A stretch of DNA of 64,000 bases from Gillisia limnaea DSM 15749. GTDB taxonomy: Bacteria > Bacteroidota > Bacteroidia > Flavobacteriales > Flavobacteriaceae. Position numbers and translations under genes: made by a program. Location of the stretch: positions 662,934-726,933 of the forward strand of contig NZ_JH594606.1 in the NCBI RefSeq assembly GCF_000243235.1, in the 5' to 3' direction. Under the pieces are notes generated by a model, which saw only the letters and a list, made by a program, of their open reading frames with translations, made no database searches and was not told the origin of the DNA. How positions within the stretch are numbered: position 1 is the first letter of the stretch; each line of letters opens with the position of its first letter. This document shows positions 6,845 to 63,427 of this stretch, in pieces.

Positions 6845-7246
6845 GCCGGTGAAAAACCGGCTTCGCTCAGGACTCCGTATAGCTATCGGGATCTCGTGCC
6901 GTTCATTTGACTTCATAAAAAAAGCTTCTCCAAAAAGAGAAGCTTTTAAAAAGAGCCGATGGAGGGAATCCCTTCGACTTCGCCGGTGAAAAACCGACTT
7001 CGCTCAGGACTCCCGATAGCTATCGGGATCTCGTCCCGTTCATTTGACTTCATAAAAAAAGCTTCTCCAAAAAGAGAAGCTTTTAAAAAGAGCCGATGGA
7101 GGGACTCCCTTCGACTTCGCCGGTGAAAAACCGACTTCGCTCAGGACTCCCGATAGCTATCGGGATCTCGTCCCGTTCATTTGACTTCATAAAAAAACCT
7201 CTCACGAAAAGGAGAGGTTTTAAACTTGAGCCGATGGAGGGACTCG
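6845..7246 (-). repeat. 137-bp tandem repeat carrying the tRNA-Thr 3' end
   Basis: Three units start at 6845, 6982 and 7119. On the minus strand each unit contains, in order, GAGTCCCTCCATCGGCTC (the last 18 nt of the tRNA-Thr gene; the outermost copy has one change), a terminator hairpin with a T-run, a spacer with the 16-nt palindrome CCCGATAGCTATCGGG, and a CGGTTTTTCACCGG hairpin. Period is exactly 137 bp between the first two pairs of units. The unit next to the gene continues into the real tRNA and has a different terminator stem from the two outer units. Confidence 0.9.
7191..7222 (-). terminator. Terminator of tRNA-Thr(TGT) copy 1
   Basis: On the minus strand AAAACCTCTC and GAGAGGTTTT form a 10-bp stem followed by seven T, 7 nt after the tRNA 3' end. 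The two outer repeat units have an AAAGCTTCTC / GAGAAGCTTT stem at the same place (near 6917-6949 and 7054-7086). Confidence 0.8.
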
Positions 7247-7302
7247 AACCCACGACCTGCTGATTACAAATCAGCTGCTCTAGCCAGCTGAGCTACATCG
7301 GC
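7229..7302 (-). tRNA. tRNA-Thr(TGT), copy 1
   Basis: The minus strand folds as a full cloverleaf: acceptor GCCGATG/CATCGGC, D-arm AGCTCAGCTGGCTAGAGC, anticodon stem CTGAT/ATCAG with loop TTTGTAA (anticodon TGT) and T-arm GTGGGTTCGAGTCCC. CCA is not encoded. Identical in sequence to the tRNA at 27505-27578. Its 3' end is repeated downstream (see 6845-7246). Confidence 0.97.
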
Positions 7303-7314
7303 CTTTATCTTTTA

Positions 7315-7581
7315 CTACAATTCGTTGACCTTGGCAACTAATTTATTTGCTTTAGTTTCCAATTCTTTTTCAATTGACTTAAAATGTTGCGATTTATTCT
7401 CAACATCCTTTGCATTGATCTTTTTTATCAAATCATCAAATTCTGAAATCGCTTCATCAATAATCGCTTCAGATTTTTTGTTGTCCGTCTTAGGGTTTGC
7501 TACTTGGTGGATGTATGCTGCTTCAATGATATCTCCCATCACATAATTCACATCGCGCTTTAACAATCTTTTACTTGCCAT
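7315..7581 (-). CDS. Conserved hypothetical helical protein (88 aa)
   Basis: The start is MASKRLLKRDVNYVMGDIIEAAY. The whole protein is predicted helical with heptad-like charge patterning (EFDDLIKKINAKDVENKSQHFKSIEKELETKANKLVAKVNEL), and it has no signal peptide or membrane helix. Its start region with a run of basic residues and its small size are like a conserved flavobacterial family of unknown function. It lies 12 nt upstream of the tRNA-Thr gene on the same strand and could share its transcript. Confidence 0.65.
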   Translation of the reverse strand: MASKRLLKRDVNYVMGDIIEAAYIHQVANPKTDNKKSEAIIDEAISEFDDLIKKINAKDVENKSQHFKSIEKELETKANKLVAKVNEL

Positions 7582-7627
7582 TCTTTCTTAAATTTAGGCT
7601 GCGAATTTAATCTATTTTTCAATATAA

Positions 7628-8605
7628 TTATAGACTTACCTCTAAAATTTTCGAATTTATCCCTTCTATTGTTATTTCATGGATCTCTGCAGGTATCAAA
7701 ATGCTTTCACCCTGCTTTAATACTTCCCGGTTATCACCATGTTTCACAATCGCTTCCCCTTCTACCCCCATAAGGATTACAAAAGAATCCCGTGAGGAAT
7801 AATCCCTTTTTACGGTGCTTTCAAGCTGAATAATATTCGTTTTGAAATAGCGTGTCGTGATAATTTCTGAAGATTGGTTGGGTTTTAGATCAAAATTTAT
7901 TCTAAAATCCCTATTCTTAGAAAGATCGATTGCTTCCAAAGCCAGATCGGTGTGAAGTTCTCTTTTTTCTCCGGAATCGGAAGTGCGGTCCCAGTCGTAA
8001 ATACGGTACGTAATATCTGAAGTTTGCTGGATCTCTGCCAACACCACTCCGGCTCCAATGGCGTGTACCAGGCCCGGTTTTATAATAAAAGAATCCCCAA
8101 CCTGCACGCGTTCACTGTTTAAAGCAGAAAGCAATTTATTGGTTTCTACCAGTTTTATATATTTCTGTTCTGTTAGAACCTCTTTGAATCCTAAAATCAA
8201 TTCAGCATCTTTATCGGCCTGCATGATATACCACATTTCTGTTTTACCAAAGGAATTGTGCCTTTTTTGCGCGATCTCATCGTTGGGATGCAATTGAACC
8301 GAAAGATTTTCGGCAGCATCGATGAATTTTATAAGCAAAGGGAATTTTGTGCCAAACCTATCAAATACCTTCTCTCCAACAAGCCTGGTATTATATTCTT
8401 CCATCAACCATTTTAGAGATCTTCCTTTAAATTTCCCATTGGAAACAATCGAGCCGCTTCCTTCAACATCTGAAATTTCCCAACTCTCTCCGGTCTCATC
8501 CGAAGGACTATTCTTATTGAAAAGTTGTTTTAATTTTTTTCCACCCCAGACTTTCTCCTTTAAAATAGGATCAAACCGTAATAAATACAACTCACACTTC
8601 TTCAT
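7628..8605 (-). CDS. manA: Class I phosphomannose isomerase
   Basis: The protein has 325 residues (short bacterial type I). It interconverts mannose-6-phosphate and fructose-6-phosphate, feeding GDP-mannose and exopolysaccharide or LPS sugars. Zinc ligands and neighbours are visible in SVQLHPNDE (Gln/His), KTEMWYI (Glu) and VHAIGAGVVLAEIQQTSD (His); the Arg of the active site is in TYRIYDW. A C-terminal cupin half ends the protein. Its start overlaps the peroxiredoxin gene by 14 nt, so the two are probably one transcript. Confidence 0.92.
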   Translation of the reverse strand: MKKCELYLLRFDPILKEKVWGGKKLKQLFNKNSPSDETGESWEISDVEGSGSIVSNGKFKGRSLKWLMEEYNTRLVGEKVFDRFGTKFPLLIKFIDAAENLSVQLHPNDEIAQKRHNSFGKTEMWYIMQADKDAELILGFKEVLTEQKYIKLVETNKLLSALNSERVQVGDSFIIKPGLVHAIGAGVVLAEIQQTSDITYRIYDWDRTSDSGEKRELHTDLALEAIDLSKNRDFRINFDLKPNQSSEIITTRYFKTNIIQLESTVKRDYSSRDSFVILMGVEGEAIVKHGDNREVLKQGESILIPAEIHEITIEGINSKILEVSL

Positions 8606-9059
8606 CTTTTAATATTTTTAACTTCTCAAGTGCTTTCTCTGTATGCCCGGAAGCAAACATATTATTGAAACGCATTCTCAAAACACCTTTTTTATCGAAT
8701 ATAAAAGTCTCCCTTCCCGGCACAAGCCCAAGTAGGGAAGATTGTACACCAAAAGCCTTTCTCGCTTCTTTGTTTTTATCGGAAAGAAAAACAAAAGGCA
8801 AATTAAATTTATTTACAAATTTAGAATGCGAAGCTTCAGAATCTGCACTTATGGCAATAACTTCAGCTCCAAGATCTTTAAAATCCTGATAACTGTCACG
8901 AAATTCGCAAGCTTCCTTTGTACATTCTGATGTGAAATTTTTTGGATAAAAATAAATCACGACTGCTTTTTCTCCCTTAAATTTGCTCGTATTAAAAGGT
9001 TTATTATCCTTATCCTTTAATATTACAGATGGAACTGTATCTCCTCTTTTCAAACCCAT
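8592..9059 (-). CDS. bcp: Bcp-type thiol peroxidase (peroxiredoxin)
   Basis: The protein has 155 residues and the AhpC/TSA fold. The peroxidatic Cys46 lies in YPKNFTSEC and the resolving Cys51 five residues later, the atypical two-Cys arrangement of the Bcp group. The usual Thr before the Cys is replaced by Ser-Glu, a common variant. GRETFIFDKKGVLR carries the active-site Arg region. The enzyme reduces hydrogen peroxide and organic peroxides with thioredoxin. It lies between queD and manA on one strand with 3 nt and overlapping spacing. Confidence 0.92.
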   Translation of the reverse strand: MGLKRGDTVPSVILKDKDNKPFNTSKFKGEKAVVIYFYPKNFTSECTKEACEFRDSYQDFKDLGAEVIAISADSEASHSKFVNKFNLPFVFLSDKNKEARKAFGVQSSLLGLVPGRETFIFDKKGVLRMRFNNMFASGHTEKALEKLKILKDEEV

Positions 9060-9062
9060 AAA

Positions 9063-9470
9063 CTATCCATTAAAAGTTACAAAATTTCTTGGTGTTTCAT
9101 ACAATGTAACTGAAAGTTCCAGGTCATTTTTTAATTTAGGCTTCAATTTATTCCAAATCACCACCGCAATATTTTCTGCAGTAGGATTAAGGTCCTGAAA
9201 ATCTGCCACCTCAACATTTAAATTTTTGTGATCAAAAGCTGTTTCCACTTCAGAATAGATTAAGTCTTTCAACACTTTCATATCTATTACAAATCCGGTT
9301 TCAGGATCAATGGTACCGGTAACAGAAACCGTTAATTCGTAATTATGACCATGGAAATTAGGATTGCTGCATTTGCCAAAGACAGCCAGGTTTTTAGCAT
9401 CATCCCAATCCTTTCTATATAAACGGTGCGCTGCATTAAAATGAGCCTTCCTATGTACGGTTACTTTCAT
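9063..9470 (-). CDS. queD: 6-carboxy-5,6,7,8-tetrahydropterin synthase (QueD/PTPS family)
   Basis: The protein has 135 residues. The zinc site is formed by His15 (NAAHR) and His40/His42 (FHGHNY), and Cys34 of GKCSNPNFHGH is the catalytic cysteine. The later FDHKNLN and PTAENIA stretches and the Glu of LYETP complete the pterin pocket. It converts 7,8-dihydroneopterin triphosphate to 6-carboxytetrahydropterin in queuosine synthesis. No other que genes are adjacent. It overlaps the idi stop by 4 nt (ATGA), a coupled pair. Confidence 0.92.
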   Translation of the reverse strand: MKVTVHRKAHFNAAHRLYRKDWDDAKNLAVFGKCSNPNFHGHNYELTVSVTGTIDPETGFVIDMKVLKDLIYSEVETAFDHKNLNVEVADFQDLNPTAENIAVVIWNKLKPKLKNDLELSVTLYETPRNFVTFNG

Positions 9471-9985
9471 TGTTGTATGGTTTGGTAATATTTGTCGAAA
9501 ATTATTTTAAACCATTCGGTATATAATCCAGGATTGGTTTGCATATCCTCTGCAACACCTTCCAGATTCATCCATTTCCAGCTTGCTGCTTCCTCCGGAT
9601 TTAGATTGGGAATATCATTGTATTTTCCAACGAGAATATGATCGAACTCATGCTCGGTCAATCCATTATCAAAAGGAGCTTTATAAATAAAGGCAATGGT
9701 ATCATCAAGTTCTGTAGTAAACCCCATTTCCTCCTGAAGGCGACGTTTTCCGGCTTCTATATTTGTTTCTCCCTCCCGTTGATGACTGCAACAGGTGTTG
9801 GTCCACAACCCAGGGGAATGGTATTTATCCAGTGCCCGCTGCTGAAGCATTAGTTCGTTTTTATCATTGAAAACAAAAACCGAAAAGGCCCGGTGTAAAA
9901 GGCCTTTTTGATGTGCTTCCATTTTGGGCATCAAACCTATAGGCTCGTCTTTTTCGTTCACTAAAATCACTTTTTCTTCCTGCAT
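9467..9985 (-). CDS. idi: Isopentenyl-diphosphate delta-isomerase, type 1
   Basis: The start MQEEKVILVNEKDEPIG at 9985 was chosen because upstream codons encode an out-of-family hydrophobic stretch. The protein has 172 residues with the Nudix fold. The catalytic Cys lies in LWTNTCCSHQ, metal-binding His residues in MEAHQKGLLHRAFS, and acids in EEMGF and EHEFDHI. It interconverts isopentenyl and dimethylallyl diphosphate for isoprenoids such as carotenoids and quinones. Ends in a 4-nt overlap with queD. Confidence 0.93.
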   Translation of the reverse strand: MQEEKVILVNEKDEPIGLMPKMEAHQKGLLHRAFSVFVFNDKNELMLQQRALDKYHSPGLWTNTCCSHQREGETNIEAGKRRLQEEMGFTTELDDTIAFIYKAPFDNGLTEHEFDHILVGKYNDIPNLNPEEAASWKWMNLEGVAEDMQTNPGLYTEWFKIIFDKYYQTIQQ

Positions 9986-10120
9986 TCTTTTTTTTAATTT
10001 CAAAAATACGAAATAGGTAAGCAAAATCATAAGAAAATAAGGAGGTAGCAGTCTAAAACTAGTTATAAAAATATTAAAAGCTAATCCGGAATCTATTCAA
10101 ATTTATGCATCAAAAATTTT

Positions 10121-10128
10121 TATCTTTG
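10121..10128 (+). promoter_or_regulatory. -7 box of the prfC promoter
   Basis: TATCTTTG matches the Bacteroidota -7 consensus TAnnTTTG exactly and lies 106 nt before the prfC ATG. A clear TTG at -33 was not found. The leader is fairly long and contains a short in-frame extension of the gene that I do not consider translated. Confidence 0.5.
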
Positions 10129-10234
10129 CAAACTTATATAGGCAATCTGGATGGGCATAACAGGAATCTCAATAAACTCCTGCGCAAATCAATTCGAAAT
10201 ATACCAAACCTATACAAGCACTAAGAATCCACTT

Positions 10235-11821
10235 ATGAAATTTACCGACGAGATCAAACGAAGGAGAACTTTTGGAATTATATCACACCCGGATGCAGGA
10301 AAAACAACCTTAACTGAGAAACTACTCCTTTTTGGTGGTGCAATTCACGAGGCAGGAGCAGTTAAATCCAATAAGATAAAAAAAGGTGCTACGAGTGACT
10401 TTATGGAAATTGAACGCCAAAGAGGGATCTCTGTAGCTACTTCGGTATTGGCATTTGAATATAAAGGAACAAAAATAAATATTCTCGATACCCCAGGGCA
10501 TAAGGATTTTGCCGAAGACACCTTTAGAACCCTTACAGCAGTAGATAGTGTTATTGTGGTAATAGATGTTGCAAAAGGAGTGGAAGAGCAAACAGAAAAG
10601 CTCGTAGAAGTTTGTAGAATGCGCAATATCCCAATGATCGTTTTTATAAATAAGATGGACCGGGAAGGAAAAGACGCCTTTGAATTGCTGGATGAAATTG
10701 AACAAAAACTAAATTTGACCGTTACACCTTTAAGTTTTCCTATTGGAATGGGATATGATTTTAAAGGGATCTATAATATTTGGGAACAAAATGTGAATCT
10801 CTTTACCGGTGATCCAAAAAAAGACATTGAAGACACTATAGAAATTAGCGACTTAAGTTCTCCGGAACTTGATAAATTGATTGGTGAGAAATCTGCAGAT
10901 AATTTAAGGGAAGAACTCGAACTTGTTGATGGCGTTTATCCAAAATTCAATAAAGAAGCTTACCTGGCGGGGAATCTTCAACCTGTATTTTTTGGATCGG
11001 CTTTAAATAATTTCGGGGTGCGGGAATTGCTGGACTGTTTTGTTGCCATCGCCCCTACTCCAAGAGCTAAGGATAGTGACAGTAGAACTGTAAAGCCTGA
11101 TGAAAAGGAATTTTCAGGGTTTGTTTTTAAGATCCATGCCAATATGGATCCAAAACATCGCGACAGACTGGCATTTATAAAGGTGGTATCCGGAACCTTT
11201 GAACGAAACAAGAATTATTTACACGTACGACAAGGAAAAAATCTTAAATTTTCAAGTCCGAATGCCTTTTTTGCTGAAAAGAAAGAAATTGTAGACATTT
11301 CCTACCCCGGCGATATTGTAGGATTACACGATACAGGGAATTTTAAGATTGGTGATACTTTGACTGAAGGGGAAATCCTGAATTACCGTGGAGTACCAAG
11401 TTTCTCCCCCGAACATTTCAGGTATATCAACAATGCCGATCCAATGAAAACAAAGCAACTTGACAAAGGAGTAGATCAATTGATGGATGAAGGGGTTGCT
11501 CAATTGTTTACATTGGAACTCAACAACAGGAAGGTTATAGGAACTGTAGGAGCTTTACAGTTTGAGGTTATACAATATAGGTTGGAACACGAATACGGAG
11601 CAAAATGCACCTATGAAAACCTGAATGTTCACAAAGCGACCTGGGTAGAAGCCAAAGACATTAAAAGCGAAGAATTTAAGGAATTTAAAAGAGTTAAAGC
11701 AAAATACCTTGCGCACGATAAACGCGGTCAACTGGTTTTCTTTGCCGATTCTCAGTTTTCACTTCAAATGACTCAGCAAAAGTATCCTTCGATAAAATTC
11801 CATTTTACTTCAGAATTTTAA
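10235..11821 (+). CDS. prfC: Peptide chain release factor 3 (GTPase)
   Basis: The start at MKFTDEIKRRRTFG matches the family N-terminus and gives 528 residues, the normal length. GTPase motifs are SHPDAGKTT (G1), DTPGHKDF (G3) and NKMDRE (G4). RF3 uses GTP to remove RF1 or RF2 from the ribosome after peptide release. The C-terminus ends PSIKFHFTSEF. Its stop overlaps the stop of the convergent SDR gene. Confidence 0.96.
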   Translation: MKFTDEIKRRRTFGIISHPDAGKTTLTEKLLLFGGAIHEAGAVKSNKIKKGATSDFMEIERQRGISVATSVLAFEYKGTKINILDTPGHKDFAEDTFRTLTAVDSVIVVIDVAKGVEEQTEKLVEVCRMRNIPMIVFINKMDREGKDAFELLDEIEQKLNLTVTPLSFPIGMGYDFKGIYNIWEQNVNLFTGDPKKDIEDTIEISDLSSPELDKLIGEKSADNLREELELVDGVYPKFNKEAYLAGNLQPVFFGSALNNFGVRELLDCFVAIAPTPRAKDSDSRTVKPDEKEFSGFVFKIHANMDPKHRDRLAFIKVVSGTFERNKNYLHVRQGKNLKFSSPNAFFAEKKEIVDISYPGDIVGLHDTGNFKIGDTLTEGEILNYRGVPSFSPEHFRYINNADPMKTKQLDKGVDQLMDEGVAQLFTLELNNRKVIGTVGALQFEVIQYRLEHEYGAKCTYENLNVHKATWVEAKDIKSEEFKEFKRVKAKYLAHDKRGQLVFFADSQFSLQMTQQKYPSIKFHFTSEF

Positions 11822-12732
11822 AAAGAATAGAATACTCCGGTTTCCTTTTCTGAAATTTTCCAAAGTTTTTTTGAGTCCTCTTCATTTTTGGCTTGAGAAG
11901 CGACATTGGCTTTTCCGGGATTTCCTTTCATTTCCTTAAATCCCTGAGGACCATAATACCCTCCCTTACTAACATTTTTATCCAAAGATGCCATCAGGGT
12001 TGAGTGAGATCCTTCTTTAGAATCCTGAGTAAATAAAGGAGCTAATGGAGTAATAACTACTGAAACCCAATTAGGGAAATGTCTAAATAATTCTGTTCTT
12101 GAAACTCCTGGATGAACGGCCGAAGAAATGGGGTTTTTACAATTATGCTCATCAAGTTTCCTTTGTAATTCCCTGGCAAACATCAGGCAGGCAAGCTTGC
12201 TTTGGCCATAAGCCTTATATTTTGAATAATTCTTCTCACTTTGTAAATCTTCAAAATCTATTTTAGCCTTTTTATGTGCCAGGGAACTTATATTTACCAC
12301 CCTGCTTCCAGAAGTTTTTTTAAGAAGGTCGAGAAGCAGACCTGTTAATGCAAAATGTCCAAAATAGTTGGCAGCCATTTGTAATTCGAAACCATCTTCT
12401 GTTTTATGATATGGAGGCATCATTACCCCGGCATTGTTAATCAGTAAATCCAGTGCATTATATTTTTTTTGAAATTCTTTAGCAAAATTCTTAACAGATT
12501 TCAAACTGCTCAAATCTATCTGAAGGATTTCTAATTGGGCATCGGGTACTTCTTTTAAAAGATCGGCTTTTGAATTGTTACCCTTTTCTATATCCCGACA
12601 GGCCATGATAACCTTTACTTTTTTCTGCACCAAACCTAGTGTAGTTTTGTATCCCAAACCAGCATTCGCACCGGTAACGATAGCTATTTTACCAGGTTGA
12701 TTGGGTAGTTCATTTAAGTTGAAATTTTCCAT
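11818..12732 (-). CDS. Short-chain dehydrogenase (retinol-dehydrogenase-like SDR)
   Basis: I chose MENFNLNELPNQPGK at 12732, 304 residues. The NAD(P) motif is TGANAGLG. NNAGVMM, the Ser of NISSLAH and YGQSKLA (Tyr and Lys) complete the catalytic set. Arg in MACRD after the second strand favours NADPH. The order of motifs is as in WWOX/retinol dehydrogenase-like SDRs, so a carbonyl or lipid oxidoreductase is likely. It starts 10 nt after the remnant of the DUF962 gene and belongs to the same strand cluster. Confidence 0.85.
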   Translation of the reverse strand: MENFNLNELPNQPGKIAIVTGANAGLGYKTTLGLVQKKVKVIMACRDIEKGNNSKADLLKEVPDAQLEILQIDLSSLKSVKNFAKEFQKKYNALDLLINNAGVMMPPYHKTEDGFELQMAANYFGHFALTGLLLDLLKKTSGSRVVNISSLAHKKAKIDFEDLQSEKNYSKYKAYGQSKLACLMFARELQRKLDEHNCKNPISSAVHPGVSRTELFRHFPNWVSVVITPLAPLFTQDSKEGSHSTLMASLDKNVSKGGYYGPQGFKEMKGNPGKANVASQAKNEEDSKKLWKISEKETGVFYSF

Positions 12733-12742
12733 ATTAATCTTT

Positions 12743-13055: not shown

Positions 13056-13057
13056 TT

Positions 13058-13519: not shown

Positions 13520-13557
13520 TTTTTTTATTCTATTGCAGTCCCTATTCAATACAAACA

Positions 13558-13585
13558 AAAACCCGAAGCTTTCACTCCGGGTTTA
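13558..13585 (-). terminator. Terminator of the DUF3467 gene
   Basis: On the minus strand AAACCCG and CGGGTTT form a stem around a 12-nt loop, followed by a TTTTTG tract. It separates DUF3467 from the GNAT gene. Confidence 0.7.
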
Positions 13586-13590
13586 AAATT

Positions 13591-13905: not shown

Positions 13906-14058
13906 TTATTTCTTAATTTTAATACCAACAGTGGGTTTAATTCTACGATAAGCACCCGTCCTGTTGGTGAGGGATTTTATTGAATTTCTGAATATTTTTT
14001 TTATCACGTACCTCTTGAGCCTGCTCTAAGGTAATTGATGTCTTAAAAGTACAAAAAA

Positions 14059-29433: not shown

Positions 29434-29750
29434 CTATCTAGCTGCCTTCTCATATTCCTTTTTATCGATCACCATTTTAGCGATAAAAAAATTGAATTTT
29501 CGCTAAAATATTGATCTCACGCTATCTTGCTGCCTTCTTATATTCCTTTTTATCGATCACCATTTTAGCGGTAAAAAAATTGAATTTTCGCTAAAATATT
29601 GATCTCACGCTATCTTGCTGCCTTCTTATATTCCTTTTTATCGATCACCATTTTAGCGATAAAAAAATTGAATTTTCGCCAAAATATTGATCTCACGCTA
29701 TCTTGCTGCCTTCTTATATTCCTTTTTATCGATCACCATTTTAGCGATAA
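29434..29750 (-). repeat. 88-bp tandem repeat of the acyl-CoA dehydrogenase 3' end
   Basis: Units start at 29434, 29522, 29610 and 29698. The last is the real gene end: its stop codon (29698-29700) and preceding codons IIAKMVIDKKEYKKAAR. The three downstream units repeat this coding tail plus a spacer. In each, ATTTTAGCGA and TCGCTAAAAT form a 10-bp stem in which one arm is the copied coding sequence for Ile-Ala-Lys-Met. Units differ by a few single bases only. Confidence 0.92.
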
Positions 29751-54984: not shown

Positions 54985-55803
54985 ATGAGACTCGAAAAAA
55001 TCCCGCAATTACAACATGTCAATTCCAACAACTTCTTCCTTTTAGCAGGTCCTTGCGCCATTGAAGGCGAAGAAATGGCATTGCGAATTGCCGAAAAAGT
55101 TCTTGAAATAACCGATAAACTCCAAATTCCTTATGTTTTCAAAGGCTCCTTTAAAAAAGCCAACCGAAGCCGGATTGACAGTTTTAGTGGAATTGGTGAT
55201 GAAAAAGCCTTAAAAATTCTTCGGAAGGTTTCCGAAACTTTTAAAATCCCTACCGTTACCGATATTCATGAAACGAGCGATGCAGCACTAGCAGCAGAAT
55301 ATGTTGATATTCTGCAAATCCCGGCCTTTTTGGTACGCCAAACAGATCTTGTTGTAGCAGCAGCAAATACCGGAAAAGTGGTAAACCTTAAAAAAGGCCA
55401 GTTTATGAGTCCGGAAAGCATGAAACACGCCGTAACCAAGGTAACCGATTGCAATAATGAACAGGTGATGATCACAGATCGCGGAACGATGTTCGGATAC
55501 CAAGATATGATCGTCGATTTTCGGGGAATACCTACCATGCGTGAATTTGCACCTACCGTTCTGGACGTTACGCACTCCCTGCAACAACCCAACCAGAGCA
55601 GCGGCGTTACCGGCGGAAGGCCGGATATGATTGAAACCATTGCCCGGGCAGGGATCGCAAACAATGTGGATGGGTTGTTTATTGAAACCCATTATGATCT
55701 TTCCGTTGCAAAAAGTGATGCTGCAAATATGCTGGATTTGAAATATCTGGAAAAGCTTCTTAGCAATTTGGTGGCGATAAGAAAAACGGTTAATTTATTA
55801 TAA
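54985..55803 (+). CDS. kdsA: 3-deoxy-8-phosphooctulonate synthase
   Basis: The protein has 272 residues. It joins arabinose-5-phosphate and phosphoenolpyruvate to Kdo-8-phosphate for lipopolysaccharide. Landmarks are LLAGPCAIEGEE, FKGSFKKANRSRIDSFSG, VTDIHETSDA, FLVRQTDLVVAAANTGKVVNLKKGQFM, DRGTMFGYQDMIVDFRG and VTGGRPDMIETIARA. The Cys in GPCAIE marks the metal-dependent class. The last 109 nt of the gene recur at 59913-60021 with two changes. Confidence 0.96.
   Translation: MRLEKIPQLQHVNSNNFFLLAGPCAIEGEEMALRIAEKVLEITDKLQIPYVFKGSFKKANRSRIDSFSGIGDEKALKILRKVSETFKIPTVTDIHETSDAALAAEYVDILQIPAFLVRQTDLVVAAANTGKVVNLKKGQFMSPESMKHAVTKVTDCNNEQVMITDRGTMFGYQDMIVDFRGIPTMREFAPTVLDVTHSLQQPNQSSGVTGGRPDMIETIARAGIANNVDGLFIETHYDLSVAKSDAANMLDLKYLEKLLSNLVAIRKTVNLL
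55685..55793 (+). repeat. Left copy of the kdsA-tail direct repeat
   Basis: These 109 bases of kdsA match 59913-60021 with two mismatches. After this point the sequences diverge into VNLL-stop here and VNNL-stop in the other copy. Confidence 0.9.
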
Positions 55804-57187: not shown

Positions 57188-57256
57188 GATTTATATATAA
57201 TACGAGGGTTTCAAACTCTCAGAGAAATTAAATTACATTAAAAAACAACATGCTTT

Positions 57257-58882
57257 ATGGCTAAGAAGATTATAAGAAGTGATGAGAGAAAATCCATTTT
57301 TGGATTGCAAGTGAATGGACCTGTATTTTTCACCTCTGCTATTATCATCATCATAATAATAACATTAACCCTGATGTTTAAAGACAGGGCAGAACAATAT
57401 TTTACCGCCACTCAGGATTTTGTCGCAAATAAAGCGGGTTGGTTTTTTATATTAAGCGTAAATGTTTTTCTAATATTTATGATTTATCTGGCCCTCAGTA
57501 AATTTGGGCAGTTAAGGATTGGAGGACAAAGTGCAACACCCGAATTCAAAACCCTTTCCTGGTTCGCGATGCTATTTAGTGCGGGAATGGGTATTGGATT
57601 GTTGTTTTGGAGTATTTCAGAACCAATTTATCATTTTATGAGTCCGCCAATGGCAGAAGGCGGAACTGCCGAAGCAGCCAAGGAAGCTATGACATTCACC
57701 TTTTTACACTGGGGTTTTCACGCCTGGGCAGTGTATGCCTTGGTAGGATTATCCCTGGCGTATTTCACGTATTCCCGTGGACTTCCACTTACCATCAGAT
57801 CGGTTTTTTATCCTTACTTAGGAGATAAAATTTACGGAAAAATTGGAGATGCCATAGATATCTTCGCTGTACTCGCCACTTTATTTGGTCTTGCCACTTC
57901 TTTAGGAATGGGCGTTCAACAAATTGCGGCAGGATTAAATCACCTTTTTGGAATAGATAGCGGTGTGCAAACTCAAATTCTTCTAATTGCCGGAATAACC
58001 TCAATTGCTACAATTTCAGTTGTTTTGGGAGTAGATAAAGGGGTGAGAGTTTTGAGTGAATGGAATATGAGAATAGCGGTGCTTTTTCTTCTGATAGTAT
58101 TGATATTAGGACCAACGATCTTTATTTTTAAATCCTTCGTACAAAATACAGGGAATTATTTATCCGCTTTTCTTGAAGTTGCAACCTGGACAGAAAGTTA
58201 CACAGGTTCCAATTGGCAAAATGCCTGGACCGTTTTTTACTGGGGATGGTGGATTGCCTGGTCACCTTTTGTTGGAATGTTTATTGCCCGTATTTCCAAA
58301 GGGCGCACCATTCGCGAGTTTATTTTGGGAGTTTTATTAGTGCCTTCCATTGTAACTTTTTTCTGGATCTCAGCTTTTGGAAGCACAGCGATACATGAGG
58401 CGCTTCTTGGAGATGATACTATTATAAATGCTGTGAATGATAATGTTGCCACTGCCCTGTTTGTGTTTTTGGAAGATTATCCTTTCGCATTTATTCTTAA
58501 CATTATTGCCATAATTTTAATTGCAGGATTCTTTGTCACCTCTTCAGATTCCGGATCTTTGGTGGTAGATAATTTAACCTCTGGAGGCAAAATAGATGCG
58601 CCTGTAGGCCAAAGAATCTTTTGGGCCATTGCTGAAGGTAGTGTTGCGGCGGTTCTTTTAATAGGCGGCGGATTACAGGCACTTCAAACAGCCACTATAG
58701 TAACAGGATTGCCTTTTGCCTTGATTTTAATAATTATGTGCTTTTCACTATACAAAGGTTTAAGCGAGGACCTACAGGAATTAAAAAAGCGGGAATCGCA
58801 GAAAGAACTTGAAAATTACGAGGAAATAGTTTCCGGTATAGTTCAAAAACGAAATATCAATCAGCAAAAAAACATTAAATAA
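57257..58882 (+). CDS. BCCT-family betaine/choline/carnitine transporter
   Basis: The protein has 541 residues and twelve membrane helices. The BCCT signature is GWWIAWSPFVGMFIARISKGRTIREF. The glycine-rich helix is FSAGMGIGLLFWSISEP. The Trp residues of the substrate box are present (FLHWGFHAWAVYALVG and the YWGWWIAW helix). A Met in AGMGIGLL favours sodium coupling over proton coupling, as known for betaine carriers. It is 69 nt after the porin gene and 8 nt before the UspA gene, one operon. Confidence 0.92.
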   Translation: MAKKIIRSDERKSIFGLQVNGPVFFTSAIIIIIIITLTLMFKDRAEQYFTATQDFVANKAGWFFILSVNVFLIFMIYLALSKFGQLRIGGQSATPEFKTLSWFAMLFSAGMGIGLLFWSISEPIYHFMSPPMAEGGTAEAAKEAMTFTFLHWGFHAWAVYALVGLSLAYFTYSRGLPLTIRSVFYPYLGDKIYGKIGDAIDIFAVLATLFGLATSLGMGVQQIAAGLNHLFGIDSGVQTQILLIAGITSIATISVVLGVDKGVRVLSEWNMRIAVLFLLIVLILGPTIFIFKSFVQNTGNYLSAFLEVATWTESYTGSNWQNAWTVFYWGWWIAWSPFVGMFIARISKGRTIREFILGVLLVPSIVTFFWISAFGSTAIHEALLGDDTIINAVNDNVATALFVFLEDYPFAFILNIIAIILIAGFFVTSSDSGSLVVDNLTSGGKIDAPVGQRIFWAIAEGSVAAVLLIGGGLQALQTATIVTGLPFALILIIMCFSLYKGLSEDLQELKKRESQKELENYEEIVSGIVQKRNINQQKNIK

Positions 58883-58890
58883 TCCTAATA

Positions 58891-59748
58891 ATGACTGAAA
58901 TAAAAAACGTCCTGGTTGCCTTAGACCTTTCAGAAATTGATAGCACCTTAATTGAGTATGCTTCATTTATTGCCGAAACCCTCAAGGTTAAAAAAGTGTA
59001 CTTTGTACATAATATCAAAAAATATGAGATCTCAGAACTATTTGAAGAACAGTTAAGAGATCTTAACCTTGACGAAATAATTGGGGATGAGTTAAATGAG
59101 AAAGTAGAAGAAAAATTCACATCTTCAGCACAATGGGAAGTACTCATTTCAGAAGATCCATATTCTGAATCCCTCATCAATTATATTGTTGACAAATATG
59201 AGATTCAGCTCGCTTTAATCGGAAATAAAAACAAGTTAAAAGGTACCGGAGTTGTTAGCGGAAAATTACTGCGTCTGCTTAAATGCAATATTCTTTCTAT
59301 CCCTAAAAGCGCGAAACCGGTTATTACCAATATTTGGGCGGGAACAGATTTTTCAAGTGCTTCTAAAAAGATTTTTGAAGTGGCTGAAAATTTACAGAAA
59401 ACCACCGCGGCTAAAGTAAAAGCGGTGCATGTATACAATGTGCCGGTTCAATTCTCTCCTTACATTCAAAAAGAACATCTCGATTTGAAGATAGAAAATC
59501 ATTTAAAGGAAAAAAATGATAAATTCATAGAAAAGATTGGATTCAAAGGTGAGTTAACTACAGAAATTATTCCGGGAAGAGATAGCGGGGTTGCAGCAAA
59601 ACTGCGTTCCAAAGCCGAAAATTCCAAGGTAGACCTCATTATTGTAGGAGACAAAGGCAGAAACACCTTCTCTTCCTTACTTGTAGGAAGTGTTACCGAT
59701 GAGCTTTTTAATCAGGATCTGGAAGTGCCTTTATGGATTGTAAAGTAA
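58891..59748 (+). CDS. Universal stress protein, tandem UspA domains
   Basis: The protein has 285 residues in two Usp domains (about 1-135 and 140-285). The second has the ATP-binding motif G-x2-G-x9-G-S/T (IVGDKGRNTFSSLLVGSVTDEL), while the first is degenerate (IGNKNKLKGTGVVSGKLLRLL). Cytosolic. As third gene after the porin and BCCT carrier it probably regulates or senses osmolyte transport, as do UspA partners of other carriers. Confidence 0.88.
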   Translation: MTEIKNVLVALDLSEIDSTLIEYASFIAETLKVKKVYFVHNIKKYEISELFEEQLRDLNLDEIIGDELNEKVEEKFTSSAQWEVLISEDPYSESLINYIVDKYEIQLALIGNKNKLKGTGVVSGKLLRLLKCNILSIPKSAKPVITNIWAGTDFSSASKKIFEVAENLQKTTAAKVKAVHVYNVPVQFSPYIQKEHLDLKIENHLKEKNDKFIEKIGFKGELTTEIIPGRDSGVAAKLRSKAENSKVDLIIVGDKGRNTFSSLLVGSVTDELFNQDLEVPLWIVK

Positions 59749-59912
59749 TTTGACGTTGATTTCGGCAAGTTTTTTTCCTGCGGGAAATCCATGCATACAA
59801 AACCGCAACTATTCACAGACAATCCCGGTAATAAAACTGGAAAATTATTTTAAAACCTACGGATTTAAAAAGAAGATAAATCTGTCTGTCCGGATACTTT
59901 GTGAAACTATAA

Positions 59913-60031
59913 AAACCCATTATGATCTTTCAGTTGCAAAAAGTGATTCTGCAAATATGCTGGATTTGAAATATCTGGAAAAGCTTCTTAGCAATTTGGT
60001 GGCGATAAGAAAAACGGTTAACAATTTGTAA
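59913..60031 (+). pseudogene. Detached copy of the kdsA 3' end
   Basis: Bases 59913-60021 match the kdsA end with 107 of 109 identities, in frame, reading THYDLSVAKSDSANMLDLKYL and ending VNNL-stop at 60031. Upstream bases have no kdsA similarity, so there is no start and no full gene. The two copies enclose the porin-BCCT-UspA operon as 4.2-kb-spaced direct repeats. Confidence 0.88.
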
Positions 60032-60046
60032 ATATCCGGGATAATA

Positions 60047-60177
60047 ATCAAGAACCTCGGGGCAAGTCCGCCCGAACGGTACGGGCGGGCCCACGAGGTA
60101 TGAATTGGAATATATTTTTAAAAACTCGAGGCATCTCGAAAGCGGGACTGGGAGGTAACCCTCAATGAGGGAATAAA
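60047..60177 (+). repeat. Modular palindromic intergenic repeat, copy 3
   Basis: The blocks ATCAAGAACCTC, CACGAGGTATGAATT, CTCGAGGCA and TAACCCTCAATGAGGG occur in the usual order. Relative to copy 1 the first hairpin carries an extra 23-nt palindrome (CCGCCCG-AACGGTA-CGGGCGG). The block starts 15 nt after the kdsA-tail copy. Confidence 0.8.
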
Positions 60178-60258
60178 CTTAATTAAGTAATTACAAGTAT
60201 TACAAAATTCAACTACTTTTTTTGCAGCTGTATAAATCGATAATTGCAAGCGACGAGA

Positions 60259-61092
60259 TTATTTAAATTTGAGCTGCACCAAAACTGGCAAATGATCTGA
60301 TGGGTATTTCAAATCCCAGGAATCACTTAAAACTGCATATTTTAAAACCTCAATATTTACTTTGGAGGTAAAAATATAATCGATCCTTCTCTTTACAGGT
60401 TCAAGGAAATTATACCCGTTAAAAGTTCCTTCAGGACCAAAATCAAGTTCAGCAATCGTTTTGGAATCGTTAAGTTTTTCTGAAAGGAATTTGATTCCGG
60501 GAGCATTGGGTTCCAGGTTAAGGTCTCCCATTAAAATAACCGGTAAACCTTCTGAATTTAATTCCTGCATCTTTTTCCAAATTAACCGGGCGCTTTCCTC
60601 CCTGGCCTCCTCGCCCATATGATCAAAATGCGTATTAAATACCCAGAAATTTTCTCCTGAATTTTTATCCCTGAATTTAGCATACGTACAAACACGGGGT
60701 AAGGCAGCATCCCAGCCCACGGAAATTTCATCGGGTGTTTTAGACAGCCAGAAAGTATTTTCCTTAAGTACCTCAAACCGGTTGCTATCGTAAAAGATAG
60801 CGCTAAATTCTCCTTTGGTTTTCCCGTCATCCCTGCCAACTCCAACATAGTTATATTCCGGCATAGTACCTTCAAAATATTCAAGCTGCTCCAATACCGC
60901 TTCCTGAACGCCAAAAATATCGGGTTGATAAAATTTTATCTGGTTGGCGAGATGATCTTTTCGTAAAGACCAGCTGTTTTCCCCGTCGTTCTCATTGGCA
61001 TATTTTATATTGTAGGACATCACTTCAATTTGAGCATTCAAGGAAAAGCTGAATATCAATGTAAGTACTGCTGAAGCAATTAATTTAAACAT
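60259..61092 (-). CDS. Exported endonuclease/exonuclease/phosphatase-family protein
   Basis: From MFKLIASAVLTLIFSFSLNAQ the protein has 277 residues with a signal peptide; an ATG two codons earlier is also possible. EEP-fold markers are MSYNIKYAN, QEAVLEQLE, FNTHFDHMG, MGDLNLEPNAPG, FNGY and YPSDHLPVLVQ (catalytic Asp/His). These are phosphodiesterases of nucleic acids, phospholipids or phosphoinositides; secretion suggests extracellular phosphate scavenging. Overlaps the stop of the upstream gene by 8 nt. Confidence 0.88.
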   Translation of the reverse strand: MFKLIASAVLTLIFSFSLNAQIEVMSYNIKYANENDGENSWSLRKDHLANQIKFYQPDIFGVQEAVLEQLEYFEGTMPEYNYVGVGRDDGKTKGEFSAIFYDSNRFEVLKENTFWLSKTPDEISVGWDAALPRVCTYAKFRDKNSGENFWVFNTHFDHMGEEAREESARLIWKKMQELNSEGLPVILMGDLNLEPNAPGIKFLSEKLNDSKTIAELDFGPEGTFNGYNFLEPVKRRIDYIFTSKVNIEVLKYAVLSDSWDLKYPSDHLPVLVQLKFK

Positions 61093-62311
61093 ATTCATTG
61101 GTTTTAGGGATATCATTTACAAAATCCTGTAAATATTGAAATCGCGCTGTGAGCTTGCCATTTTCGGTCATTTTAGCCCTTTTTAGAATTCCGTTCTTGT
61201 CCCCGTTAAAGAATGCAGGAATTACTTGCTTCAGGAACATTTCCCCAAAACCCTCACTGGCATCTTTGGGAAGCTCACACGGCAAATTATCTACCGCCAT
61301 CACTGTAATTGCACCTTTTTGCCGAAAATCCACTTCCCCTCCTGTTTGGGGATCATATCCATAGAATGGATATGCAATTGTTGAAGGACGAATTGTGCTG
61401 GCAATTGGGCCATTGATATCACAGGAAATATCTGCGATCAAATCAATTTTAAAATCGGGTGATGCGGCATCTTCTCTGGTAAAGAATTTTGGCGCTCCGT
61501 CTCCATAGAAGTGACCTGCTATATACATATTGGTTACGTGCGCAAATCTTTTAAAATTAGAGGCATATTTTTCCGGATGATTATAGAAATCCCGGATGCT
61601 TCCTTTTCCCCCATCCAAACGTTTGTTATAATCCATCACGTCAATAATGCAATAAACAGATTCATTATATTCTATGTTCAAATAATTGGAAACATCCACT
61701 TGTTTGATCTTTAAATGATCCAGGATTTCTTTAGCCCCTAAACCAACTTTTCCGCTTCCGCTAAGTAAAATTTTCCTGGGCGGAATTTCGATTTTATCCA
61801 ATTCTGCCAACATGGATTTAAGATCTGCCAAATTTTCTGCTTTTGAAAGGTCAAATAAACCATCTCTTAATCCCAGTGCCCTAAAGCCATTATAAGCTCC
61901 TACCAAACCTGCATATCTGCCAAAACCTATAAGTCGGTGGCCATTTTCTTTAACAATGACTTCGTGATCGTAGAGTTCTATATTATTTTTTAATATTGCC
62001 CTTAGCAAGTCTTGGTTATAGGGCTGCTTTTTGATTGTATGAGAGAAAAAGAAATATTTTTTATTCGGAATTAAGTCCGGAATTGGCACTTCCTTTACCC
62101 CCAGCATCACATCACAATTTGAAACATCTTCTGAAACCTCAAATCCTGCCTCCCGATATTCATCATCTGTAAAAACCCGTATTGCTGAAGATTCTATTTT
62201 AAAGCTTGCCTCTGTAAATTTTTGAACAACTTCTTTTAGTTTTTCATGAGAAAAGACCACCCTTCTGTCTGGTGGGGTTTTACGTTCTTTGATGATGGCA
62301 AATTTTATCAT
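61085..62311 (-). CDS. Lys1-like (saccharopine/alanine dehydrogenase) NAD-dependent oxidoreductase
   Basis: The start MIKFAIIKERKTPPDRRVVFS at 62311 gives 408 residues; upstream in-frame codons overlap tmRNA leader sequences. The N-terminal AlaDH/PNT domain (RVVFSHEKLKE, FSHTIKKQPYNQDLL) is followed by a nucleotide-binding half with KILLSGSGKVGLGAKEIL, and the end DLIADISCDINGPIASTIRPSTIAYPFYGYDP carries substrate-binding residues of saccharopine dehydrogenase. The reaction (lysine and 2-oxoglutarate to saccharopine, or a related amino acid) is not certain. Confidence 0.8.
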   Translation of the reverse strand: MIKFAIIKERKTPPDRRVVFSHEKLKEVVQKFTEASFKIESSAIRVFTDDEYREAGFEVSEDVSNCDVMLGVKEVPIPDLIPNKKYFFFSHTIKKQPYNQDLLRAILKNNIELYDHEVIVKENGHRLIGFGRYAGLVGAYNGFRALGLRDGLFDLSKAENLADLKSMLAELDKIEIPPRKILLSGSGKVGLGAKEILDHLKIKQVDVSNYLNIEYNESVYCIIDVMDYNKRLDGGKGSIRDFYNHPEKYASNFKRFAHVTNMYIAGHFYGDGAPKFFTREDAASPDFKIDLIADISCDINGPIASTIRPSTIAYPFYGYDPQTGGEVDFRQKGAITVMAVDNLPCELPKDASEGFGEMFLKQVIPAFFNGDKNGILKRAKMTENGKLTARFQYLQDFVNDIPKTNEYV

Positions 62312-62369
62312 TATTGGTATAGGTTTTGCTTTAAATTGCGTGTTGCCCAAAGATATAAATTTTAAACTG

Positions 62370-62377
62370 TATCTTTG
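62370..62377 (+). promoter_or_regulatory. -7 box upstream of the ssrA region
   Basis: TATCTTTG, an exact TAnnTTTG match, lies 126 nt before tmRNA. The sequence after it starts the Flavo-1-like element, so both RNAs are likely one precursor. Confidence 0.5.
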
Positions 62378-62482
62378 CAGCCGCGTTAGGGATAGAAGAG
62401 GAAATCCCGTCTAAATTTCTAAAATTTTGACGGATTGAAACGGATAGCCCGTCCCGCCTGAGTTTTTACGAAGGAGGGAACG
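62378..62482 (+). ncRNA. Probable Flavo-1-like structured RNA
   Basis: The order CGCGTTAGGGATAGAAG, a hairpin (CCGTC with GACGG around an AT-rich loop), GGATAGCCCGTCC and GGGAACGCC is one I recall from a widespread flavobacterial intergenic RNA, Flavo-1 in Rfam as I remember it. GGGATAG/GATAGCCC and GGCG/CGCC-type pairings are compatible. Position directly after a promoter and before ssrA suggests it is a transcribed leader. Function unknown. Confidence 0.5.
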
Positions 62483-62503
62483 CCAAAAAGTTCATTACAA
62501 TAT

Positions 62504-62899
62504 GGGGTCGACTTGGATTTGACAGCGAGTCAAATTGGGTTGTAAGCACGTAGAGCGCTGGGATATAGCTCTTAAATCTCATATTTCACACTTTTTAAAC
62601 GGCGAGAATAACTACGCCTTGGCTGCGTAACCGAATTACAGTAGGTTACACTTAATCCCTACCAGGTAGGGAGCCGAGATGTCTCGTGGAAGCCTTGATT
62701 TACGGCGGCCACACCAGAGACACCGAAAAAGTAAATATAGGAAGCGCAGGGCCTTGATGTTCTTCTGAAATCTAATTGAGGATACGTGTAAGATTGGTGG
62801 TTTTCGGCCGGTCTTGCATCGACAATCAAGCGAAAACTAAACGTGTAGAAAGCTTCTTAATTGCTTGTTTGGACGAGGGTTCGAAACCCTCCGACTCCA
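62504..62899 (+). ncRNA. ssrA: tmRNA
   Basis: The ends pair as a tRNA-like acceptor (GGGGTCG with CGACTCC), and the T-arm GAGGGTTCGAAACCCTC precedes the 3' end. The tag frame starts at GGC 62601 and reads GENNYALAA with TAA at 62628-62630; a non-encoded Ala precedes it. Pseudoknot-type pairings follow between 62640 and 62850. tmRNA with SmpB rescues stalled ribosomes. Confidence 0.95.
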
Positions 62900-62904
62900 C
62901 CTTC

Positions 62905-62947
62905 GCCCTCCGAAGCTTTTGGATACAAAAGCGAAGGAGGGCTTTTT
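62905..62947 (+). terminator. tmRNA terminator
   Basis: GCCCTCC/GGAGGGC and, inside it, GCTTTTG/CAAAAGC form a long stem, followed by five T, 5 nt after the tmRNA end. Confidence 0.9.
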
Positions 62948-62979
62948 ATCTTTAATTATCTTTCAAAATAACGAAACAA

Positions 62980-62996
62980 GTGAGGGCTTCGGTGGA
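62980..62996. repeat. Palindrome upstream of the GIY-YIG gene
   Basis: GGTGGAC-AG-GTCCACC forms a perfect 7-bp hairpin about 60 nt before the GIY-YIG start. It has no T-tract, so it could be a protein-binding or RNA-processing site rather than a terminator. Confidence 0.4.
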
Positions 62997-63049
62997 CAGG
63001 TCCACCTTATTTATTATCTTAAACGAGTTATGTATATAATTTTTTTACG

Positions 63050-63295
63050 ATGGACTTACCTTTCGGCGTGTATATATTAAAATGCTCTAATGGACAACAC
63101 TATACCGGATACACGGAAAACATAGACCAACGTTTAATAGCTCATCAAAAAGGAAAAGTCAATTTCACCAAAGACAAATTACCTGTAGAACTCGTTCACC
63201 TTTCTTTATTCCCAAACAAGAAAAAAGCCTGTTATTTTGAACGGCACCTAAAAAGCGGTTCAGGAGCAGCATTTAGAAATAAGCGGCTGTTATAA
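63050..63295 (+). CDS. Small GIY-YIG nuclease
   Basis: The protein has 81 residues. The GIY-YIG core is FGVYILKCSNGQHYTGYTENIDQRLIAHQKGK (the YIL and YTG elements, then Arg28 in the helix), and the catalytic Glu is in CYFERHLKSGSG. Length fits the stand-alone UPF0213/YhbQ-like type. In Flavobacteriaceae such genes occur in several copies next to stable RNA genes. Here it lies between tmRNA and a copy of the tmRNA tail (63416-63427). An intact nuclease is likely; its natural substrate is unknown. Confidence 0.85.
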   Translation: MDLPFGVYILKCSNGQHYTGYTENIDQRLIAHQKGKVNFTKDKLPVELVHLSLFPNKKKACYFERHLKSGSGAAFRNKRLL

Positions 63296-63415
63296 ACAAA
63301 AATCTGCCGGGCTTTTTCGCCTGAGCAAATTTTTTTATTTTAAGACGCCCGGACTGAAAGGACGGTTAGGCATAGCGGCATTTCCTAATGAGGAGCTCCC
63401 GGGGTTAGACACACT

Positions 63416-63427
63416 CTCCGACTCCAC
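63416..63427 (+). repeat. Copy of the tmRNA 3' end
   Basis: CTCCGACTCCAC repeats the last bases of tmRNA (62889-62900), with GGGTT 7-11 nt before it in both places. The T-arm is not intact, so this is no functional tRNA-like end. It lies 527 bp downstream of the original and beyond the GIY-YIG gene. Confidence 0.6.

What the first reader, a model, noticed from the sequence alone, without database searches (positions are those of the whole stretch)
6845..63427. Four independent 3'-tail duplications in one 64-kb window
tRNA-Thr, an acyl-CoA dehydrogenase, kdsA and ssrA each have additional copies of only their 3' ends nearby, always downstream and in the same orientation. In three cases a terminator or stable hairpin is part of or next to the copy. 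Four cases of the same geometry in a short region without transposases suggest a common process that copies gene tails, for example integrase-like insertion at 3' ends, RNA-templated capture of transcript ends, or slippage at terminators. This is an inference; each case might also have its own history.
Basis: inference. Interest (0 to 1): 0.75.

Follow-up and report, generated by a model that had tools for sequence, protein, structure and literature searches.

The report
Nuclease-linked elements copying tRNA gene ends
Two of the four duplicated gene tails belong to a widespread, apparently undescribed set of small genetic elements that sit at tRNA and tmRNA genes in Bacteroidota, each carrying a spare copy of the gene end it interrupts and often a small DNA-cutting enzyme; the other two look like ordinary local duplications.

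Summary
All four tail copies exist, but the ssrA copy is only 12 exact nt and was confirmed by comparison with congeners. The tRNA-Thr and ssrA cases belong to one system. In the window's genome, 8 of 42 tRNA/tmRNA genes (7 loci) have a tail copy downstream, against 11 of 717 sampled protein genes (different match rules). A 29-nt core lies 12-389 nt downstream of a tRNA at 72 of 92 sites in 80 public-genome loci; 68 are followed by at least 9 nt of that tRNA's own tail, mostly starting in the T-loop, and the arm before the core is complementary to that tail. A second form is a small GIY-YIG nuclease gene: 27 of 29 loci sampled across the phylum have a same-strand tRNA within 700 nt, typically with a tail or head remnant on the gene's far side. 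The nuclease tree groups by target RNA gene (14 changes versus 36.9 shuffled). Best reading: homing-type elements that interrupt an RNA gene and supply a replacement end; closest precedents are phage SegB and fungal mitochondrial mORFs. The acyl-CoA dehydrogenase case is a plain tandem repeat; kdsA is a lineage-specific duplication. Cleavage and mobility are inferred.

The parts
7228..7302 (-). tRNA-Thr(TGT), intact target gene of the tail array
   Evidence: ARAGORN and Rfam
6844..7254 (-). Tail-element array: 137-bp unit x 2.9 = tRNA tail + terminator-like hairpin + GGGAC arm + variant element core (GAGA...TCCTGAGCGAAGTC...GAAGGG, interrupted by two palindromic inserts)
   Evidence: units read by eye
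7090..7106 (-). First displaced tRNA-Thr tail copy, starting at the T-loop
6953..6969 (-). Second displaced tRNA-Thr tail copy (one mismatch)
62504..62901 (+). ssrA (tmRNA), intact target gene
63050..63295 (+). Small GIY-YIG nuclease ORF (81 aa) between ssrA and the displaced tail unit; ssrA-linked relatives in other genomes
   Evidence: Pfam PF01541, E 1.1e-14; GIY-YIG genes beside ssrA in L310, L315, L319 and L416; tmRNA group in the tree
63297..63430 (+). Decayed ssrA-tail unit, including terminator-like sequence, ending in the tail copy
   Evidence: aligned to L380 and L385; ssrA-tail copies read by eye in L380, L384, L385
63416..63427 (+). ssrA tail copy CTCCGACTCCAC
29434..29750 (-). NOT part of the system: 88-bp tandem repeat over the acyl-CoA dehydrogenase 3' end
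59908..60021 (+). NOT shown to be part of the system: kdsA tail copy (source 55680-55793)

Best explanation
Structured-RNA genes of Bacteroidota host small, target-specific, homing-type elements. An element sits inside the RNA gene and supplies a replacement for the end it cuts off, so the gene stays intact and the original end is left on the far side as a remnant. Form 1 carries a GIY-YIG nuclease gene, typically about 80-110 aa: [RNA gene]-[nuclease gene]-[displaced tail], or [displaced head, with a palindrome in the loci read by eye]-[nuclease gene]-[RNA gene]. Form 2 is a coding-free REP-like hairpin: [RNA gene]-[spacer or terminator]-[arm complementary to the tail]-[core]-[tail copy], often in tandem. 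Window case 1 (tRNA-Thr) is Form 2; case 4 (ssrA) is a nuclease gene beside a decayed tail unit. Shown: the anatomy, Form-2 breakpoints, strand bias, arm complementarity, target-specific lineages, and presence or absence among congeners at ssrA. Inferred: the nuclease cuts the RNA gene (near the T-loop for tails, nearer the 5' part for heads); repair from an element-bearing copy installs the element and its spare end; repeated cutting and repair expands it into arrays; Form 2 is a satellite of GIY-YIG nucleases. The acyl-CoA dehydrogenase and kdsA cases are separate local duplications.
For: Own genome: tail copies at 8 of 42 RNA genes versus 11 of 717 protein genes (match rules differ). The element pattern (up to 2 mismatches) has 8 sites in the genome; all 8 lie downstream of tRNAs Gly, Lys, Ile or Leu on the same strand. 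Family: 30 of 199 genomes (own included) hold the pattern, reversed-pattern control 0; of 29 relatives' loci, 24 lie 17-214 nt downstream of a tRNA and one (L143) flanks a GIY-YIG gene. Public genomes: 72 of 92 sites in 80 of 111 stretches follow a tRNA at 12-389 nt, 68 with a tail copy of at least 9 nt, 59 of those starting at TTC|GA or TTCG|A (one-base ambiguity where the element ends in G). Arms match their own tail: mean 4.23 versus 2.79 permuted, 0 of 5000 (26 loci). Nuclease genes: same-strand tRNA within 700 nt in 18 of 26 family loci and 27 of 29 phylum loci, against 0.72% of positions expected in the own genome. Far-side remnant: tail in 22 of 28 when the RNA gene is upstream, head in 13 of 16 when downstream (one locus with tRNAs on both sides not counted). 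Tree by target: 14 changes versus 36.9 shuffled, minimum 30 of 300. ssrA: nuclease gene absent in 6 of 6 congeners fetched for it, present in G203. Precedent: phage GIY-YIG enzyme SegB cuts inside tRNA genes, prefers RAWTSGAAC and is needed for tandem amplification (PMC13096335); I read that motif as the reverse strand of the T-loop.
Against: No cleavage, mobility or expression data. A1 was built from RNA-linked members, and genomes that contributed to it are in both samples; without them 15 of 23 and 26 of 27. In congeners, 12 of 18 higher-scoring loci have an RNA gene within 700 nt; of the 6 without, two (L418, L426) have full 1.5-kb flanks. Form 2 has no coding capacity, and its link to the nuclease rests mainly on L143, L306 and REP cores judged similar by eye. 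Form-1 breakpoints were not mapped systematically, and the own tRNA-Asn copy starts in the anticodon arm, not the T-loop. The SegB motif is exact in only 16 of 41 own tRNAs (34 with at most one mismatch). The best structural matches are UPF0213 and SLX1; I-TevI is weak at E 0.0088. Three of four folded Form-2 hairpins were no more stable than shuffles. I read 8 of the 92 core sites as ordinary REP contexts. Tree support is often low (26 of 55 inner branches open). Other ssrA-GIY loci (L310, L315, L319) show no further 9-nt tail copy in the stretches searched.
Confidence: 0.62

Rival explanations
1. Ordinary tandem or partial duplication by replication slippage or illegitimate recombination. 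Selection keeps only tail-downstream or head-upstream duplicates because those leave an intact gene with its promoter; the nuclease and REP sequences are bystanders.
For: Explains why no head copies lie downstream (0 of 42). Fits the acyl-CoA dehydrogenase array and the 5-versus-2 protein-gene balance.
Against: Does not predict the same T-loop start in 59 of 68 tail copies, the same core at different tRNAs and species, target-matched arms, the nuclease genes or their target-specific lineages. Last copies can carry a different terminator or follow-on from earlier ones (Gly and Lys, by eye), which a simple tandem duplication does not give.
Confidence: 0.15
2. The tail hairpin is a functional RNA module of the tRNA transcript (3' processing, termination or stability), kept by selection; its mobility is historical.
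For: Tail copies often stay exact over 16-18 nt while terminators diverge; arms co-vary with tails; spacers often contain terminator-like hairpins (by eye).
Against: Only 30 of 199 family genomes have the pattern, at many different tRNAs. The identical tRNA-Thr copy in the window lacks it. Three of four single hairpins fold no better than shuffles.
Confidence: 0.12
3. Remnants of tyrosine-integrase islands that target tRNA 3' ends (attL/attR).
For: Same geometry of restored and displaced tail, and tRNA 3' ends are classic attB sites (established knowledge).
Against: Form-2 units are roughly 45-140 bp and Form-1 units a few hundred bp, with GIY-YIG the only gene I recognised in those read. Head copies also occur. 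A shared core with target-matched arms is not an att feature as I know it. I did not search these loci for integrases.
Confidence: 0.05
4. One reading: one general process copies transcript 3' ends of any gene, including kdsA and the dehydrogenase.
For: Same geometry in all four cases; protein genes tail 11 versus head 3 before filtering (P = 0.057).
Against: After filtering 5 versus 2. kdsA and dehydrogenase copies show no shared core by eye. Nuclease-linked copies include heads.
Confidence: 0.06

Closest known systems
Phage T4/T6 SegB free-standing GIY-YIG homing endonuclease (PMC13096335: abstract, outline, passages and two result sections read)
   Same: GIY-YIG domain; genes co-localise with tRNAs; cuts inside tRNA genes; preferred motif RAWTSGAAC resembles the T-loop reverse strand (my reading); needed for tandem amplification next to tRNAs
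   Different: Phage-borne; the parts read mention no partial tRNA copy carried with the nuclease gene and no lineage-per-tRNA pattern (they say no isotype is favoured); the family here is closest to UPF0213/SLX1 among solved structures
Fungal mitochondrial mobile endonuclease ORFs (mORFs) with C-terminal duplication: Allomyces atp6, Glomus atp6/atp9/cox2/nad3 (PMC3630166: passages read)
   Same: Endonuclease ORF inserted at a gene's 3' part, bringing a replacement end and leaving the native end downstream
   Different: Protein-coding mitochondrial genes and a LAGLIDADG ORF in the atp6 example; here bacterial tRNA/tmRNA genes, heads as well as tails, and a coding-free form
REP elements with REP-associated tyrosine transposases (RAYT) (recalled)
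   Same: Short hairpin repeats, some flanking the gene of a nuclease
   Different: The gene flanked here is GIY-YIG; Form 2 sits at tRNA tails with arms matched to the target
Integrative elements in tRNA 3' ends (recalled)
   Same: Tail of the tRNA restored on one side and duplicated on the other
   Different: No integrase noticed, very short, own core, target-matched arm, heads too

Membership tests
Free-standing homing endonuclease element | Encodes a homing-type nuclease domain (GIY-YIG) | tested here: met
   PF01541 E 1.1e-14 for the window ORF; NCBIfam group I intron endonuclease in 4 of 11 members, best E 4e-5, the window member below its cut-off; UPF0213, SLX1 and weak I-TevI structural matches
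Free-standing homing endonuclease element | Gene lies in or beside its target, with lineages specific to one target across species | tested here: met
   27 of 29 loci beside a same-strand tRNA; 14 label changes versus 36.9 shuffled
Free-standing homing endonuclease element | Present and absent alleles at the same locus in relatives | tested here: met
   ssrA: absent in 6 of 6 congeners fetched, present in own and G203; other targets not tested
Free-standing homing endonuclease element | Cuts element-free allele and is copied into it | not testable with these tools
   needs biochemistry and transfer assays
mORF with terminal duplication | Replacement end on one side, native end displaced to the other side of the ORF | tested here: met
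   anatomy met: tail remnants 22 of 28, head remnants 13 of 16; which end is native was not tested
mORF with terminal duplication | Target is a protein-coding mitochondrial gene | tested here: not met
   targets seen are bacterial tRNA and tmRNA genes
SegB family | Sequence membership in phage endonuclease families | tested here: inconclusive
   each of five PHROGs matched 1 of 11 members, best E 6.5e-4; none matched the window member
REP/RAYT system | REP hairpins with a Y1 tyrosine transposase | not tested
   no RAYT search was made; the flanked genes looked at were chosen as GIY-YIG matches
Tyrosine-integrase island | Integrase gene between the att repeats | tested here: inconclusive
   no integrase noticed in the units read; no dedicated search

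The most novel reading that the evidence does not exclude
A phylum-wide class of tRNA/tmRNA-gene parasites: GIY-YIG nuclease lineages each tied to one RNA gene, each carrying a spare end of its host gene, plus a coding-free satellite (the 29-nt-core hairpin) that adapts its arm to whichever tRNA tail it enters and appears also in records titled CPR2, Shapirobacteria and Balneolaceae. It would be the bacterial structured-RNA counterpart of mitochondrial mORFs and a non-transposase driver of REP-like repeats.
Probability: 0.45. Interest if true: 0.88.

Novelty: new variant of a known kind. Interest (0 to 1): 0.8.

Why it matters
Homing nucleases that hit essential RNA genes need a way to avoid killing the host. 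Self-splicing introns are one answer; carrying a spare gene end is another, known from fungal mitochondria. If this holds, Bacteroidota tRNA and tmRNA genes are invaded by a target-specific version of the second answer. That would explain tandem tRNA-tail arrays, truncated pseudo-tRNAs and clusters of near-identical GIY-YIG genes, and give a concrete candidate driver for REP-like repeats without a transposase. It also makes testable why each nuclease lineage keeps to one tRNA.

Tried and rejected
One process for all four cases: rejected. The dehydrogenase array is a plain 88-bp tandem. No kdsA tail copy beyond 16- to 19-nt chance-like hits was found in 4 of 4 congeners read that share the kdsA-X-BCCT-USP gene order, so that gene block can occur without a duplicated kdsA tail; the cause of the window's copy stays open.

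Chance for the ssrA copy: rejected on the congener alignment.

Head copies DOWNSTREAM as the control: not a fair mirror; head copies upstream used instead.

Literature: no hits for GIY-YIG with 'repetitive extragenic palindromic', GIY-YIG with 'REP sequences', a six-term tRNA genes/T-loop/REP query, or a six-term Bacteroidetes/tRNA genes/GIY-YIG/tandem/homing endonuclease/chromosom query. Ten papers hold GIY-YIG and a word starting 'rayt'; from the listing, most are fungal and none is about REP elements by title. Other searches seen as listings only: (long lists cut at 20). Subscription journals and preprints are not in that library.

Single-hairpin stability: three of four folds not better than shuffles.
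Full report
What was checked. Self-comparison and tRNA/RNA searches and direct reading confirm three duplications and a short fourth one. tRNA-Thr has a 137-bp tandem running from its T-loop through a terminator-like hairpin and a palindromic segment. The acyl-CoA dehydrogenase has an 88-bp tandem. kdsA has 114 nt of its 3' end repeated 4.2 kb away. ssrA has only 12 exact nt, 515 nt beyond its end, separated by a GIY-YIG nuclease ORF.

Is it more than chance, and is it about gene tails in general? Among 717 protein genes of at least 450 bp, tail copies within 5 kb downstream (18 nt or more, 80% or more identical) occur in 11, head copies upstream in 3, head copies downstream in 1, tail copies upstream in 2. 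Setting aside four REP-like or weak tail hits, the two window genes and one weak head hit leaves 5 versus 2; one event counts on both sides, since it copies the border of two genes (C2:1706015 and 1708812). RNA genes behave differently: with exact 12-mers of the last or first 24 nt within 1.5 kb, 8 of 42 (41 tRNA matches plus ssrA; 7 loci) have a tail copy downstream, none a head copy downstream, 2 a head copy upstream and 1 a tail copy upstream. By eye, tRNA-Leu and tRNA-Phe also have degenerate tail arrays.

Form 2, the coding-free element. Tail copies at tRNA-Gly, -Ile and -Lys share GAGAAGTTTATCC(T/C)GAG(C/T)G(A/T)AG. In the whole genome this pattern, allowing two mismatches, has 8 sites, all downstream of tRNAs on the same strand. 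With at most one mismatch it is in 30 of 199 family genomes, own included, with 58 sites listed; the reversed pattern has none. Of 29 relatives' loci (one per genome), 24 follow a tRNA (Thr, Trp, Gly, Lys, Asn, Gln, Met, Ile, Ala or His), 23 of them with an exact 12-mer of its tail downstream. Of the other 5, three carry tRNA-tail-like copies without an annotated tRNA (L138, L139, L162; L139 also abuts what reads like a protein-gene start), one flanks a GIY-YIG gene (L143) and one is unassigned (L163). In named genomes (111 stretches, 80 held) there are 92 exact sites of the 29-nt core: 72 follow a tRNA, 68 of these are followed by at least 9 nt of that tRNA's tail, 62 reach its 3' end, and 59 of the 68 start at TTC|GA or TTCG|A. 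Of the 20 without a tRNA upstream, I read 12 as tail copies with the tRNA missing or off the contig, and 8 as ordinary REP contexts. The sequence 5' of the core pairs with the tail copy: mean 4.23 nt against 2.79 for permuted pairs, 0 of 5000 as high (26 loci with a located tail); by eye the pairing includes T-loop positions 59-60, which are not stem positions in tRNA. Window case 1 reads as GGGAC-GAGA-[palindrome]-TCCTGAGCGAAGTC-[insert]-GAAGGG-AGTCCC, the same architecture with two inserts (by eye).

Form 1, the nuclease gene. The ssrA-linked ORF led to a family search. In the own genome PF01541 has 10 matches; three short genes sit at tRNA-Asn, tRNA-Arg and ssrA with partial copies of those genes. 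An alignment of 11 RNA-linked members (A1) was searched in 60 family genomes (49 with a match) and 118 phylum genomes (60 with a match at E 1e-14). In the family sample of 30 loci, 4 are at contig edges; 18 of the other 26 have a same-strand tRNA within 700 nt, and one more has ssrA 827 nt upstream. In the phylum sample 27 of 29 do, own excluded. Expected by position in the own genome: 0.72%. When the RNA gene is upstream, a tail copy (11-mers) lies beyond the nuclease gene in 7 of 8 and 15 of 20; when it is downstream, a head copy lies before the nuclease gene in 8 of 10 and 5 of 6; one locus with tRNAs on both sides (L412) is not counted. The samples are partly circular, since genomes used to build A1 are in them; without those, 15 of 23 and 26 of 27. 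In the genus, 12 of 18 loci of 76 bits or more have an RNA gene within 700 nt, three of them own; of the 6 without, four lie near a contig edge and two do not. Members below 66 bits are not RNA-linked (0 of 3, 0 of 11); several such genes are flanked by inverted REP sequences instead (by eye, output cut).

Target-specific lineages. On a tree of 58 nuclease proteins (52 labelled, 13 labels) the target label changes 14 times, against a mean of 36.9 and a minimum of 30 in 300 shuffles; 12 is the least possible. Val (5 of 5) and tmRNA (3 of 3) members form supported groups, 4 of 5 Pro and 5 of 7 Leu members too; Arg members lie on neighbouring branches rather than in one clade, and 26 of 55 inner branches are weak. 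Lineages tied to a target are what homing nucleases predict.

ssrA in the genus. Six congeners fetched for ssrA lack the nuclease gene; three of them have ssrA-tail copies after ssrA, one degenerate in L380 and two each read in L384 and L385 (by eye), and the window's 63294-63427 aligns with L380 and L385. A seventh congener, G203, has the nuclease gene. So both the tail copies and the nuclease gene vary within the genus.

kdsA. Five of 10 congeners have the same unassigned gene after kdsA. Four of these were read further: gene order kdsA-X-BCCT-USP is conserved and there is no kdsA tail copy beyond 16- to 19-nt hits. The copy is specific to the window's lineage among those seen; its cause is open.

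How it most likely works. The phage GIY-YIG enzyme SegB cuts inside tRNA genes, prefers RAWTSGAAC (23 of 83 sites), and is needed for tandem amplification around the tRNA, which depends on recombination genes (PMC13096335). I read that motif as the reverse strand of GTTCGAATC, the T-loop, where Form-2 tail copies begin; 16 of 41 own tRNAs match exactly and 34 with at most one mismatch. Fungal mitochondrial mORFs show how a nuclease element can sit in an essential gene: it brings a replacement end and leaves the native end downstream (PMC3630166, passages). Combining the two gives the proposed mechanism. The domain is closest to UPF0213 and SLX1 among solved structures; SLX1 is named a structure-specific endonuclease there, which would suit hairpin targets. 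Cutting, copying and the dependence of Form 2 on the nuclease are inferences.

Limits. tRNA labels are the nearest gene or the one with a remnant copy. Form-1 breakpoints were not mapped systematically. Named non-Bacteroidota hits (CPR2, Shapirobacteria, Omnitrophota) may be binning errors. No published report was found in the searches named, in a library that lacks most subscription papers.

Noticed in passing
6520-6640 and 60083-60177: Dispersed palindromic repeat of about 120 bp with 47 matches in the genome; one copy follows the kdsA tail copy and one lies just beyond the tRNA-Thr array.
   Followed up: partly
62375-62458: Flavo-1 sRNA (RF01705) directly upstream of ssrA, just above the gathering score.
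   Followed up: no
L132, the later part of the stretch printed: Downstream of what reads like the 5S rRNA gene a terminator-like unit is repeated with palindromes, similar in style to the tRNA arrays.
   Followed up: no
G000:C2:2352721-2354301 and C2:2831318-2832217: Two protein genes with tail copies downstream and one gene in between each: an ORF that looks like KilA-N after an HsdM-like gene, and a large glycosidase-like gene after an esterase-like gene (names from reading only).
   Followed up: no
L184: A GIY-YIG gene between a head copy and the full gene of an epimerase-like protein, so protein genes may also be targets (by eye).
   Followed up: no
L208, L217, L220: The 29-nt core in records titled CPR2, Shapirobacteria and Omnitrophota; in the first two beside the contig's own tRNA-Ser or tRNA-Pro with matching tail.
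   Followed up: no
L305 (G174:C34:6982-9778): Eight GIY-YIG genes in tandem about 364 bp apart; those read are separated by tRNA-tail-like segments (part of the array printed).
   Followed up: partly
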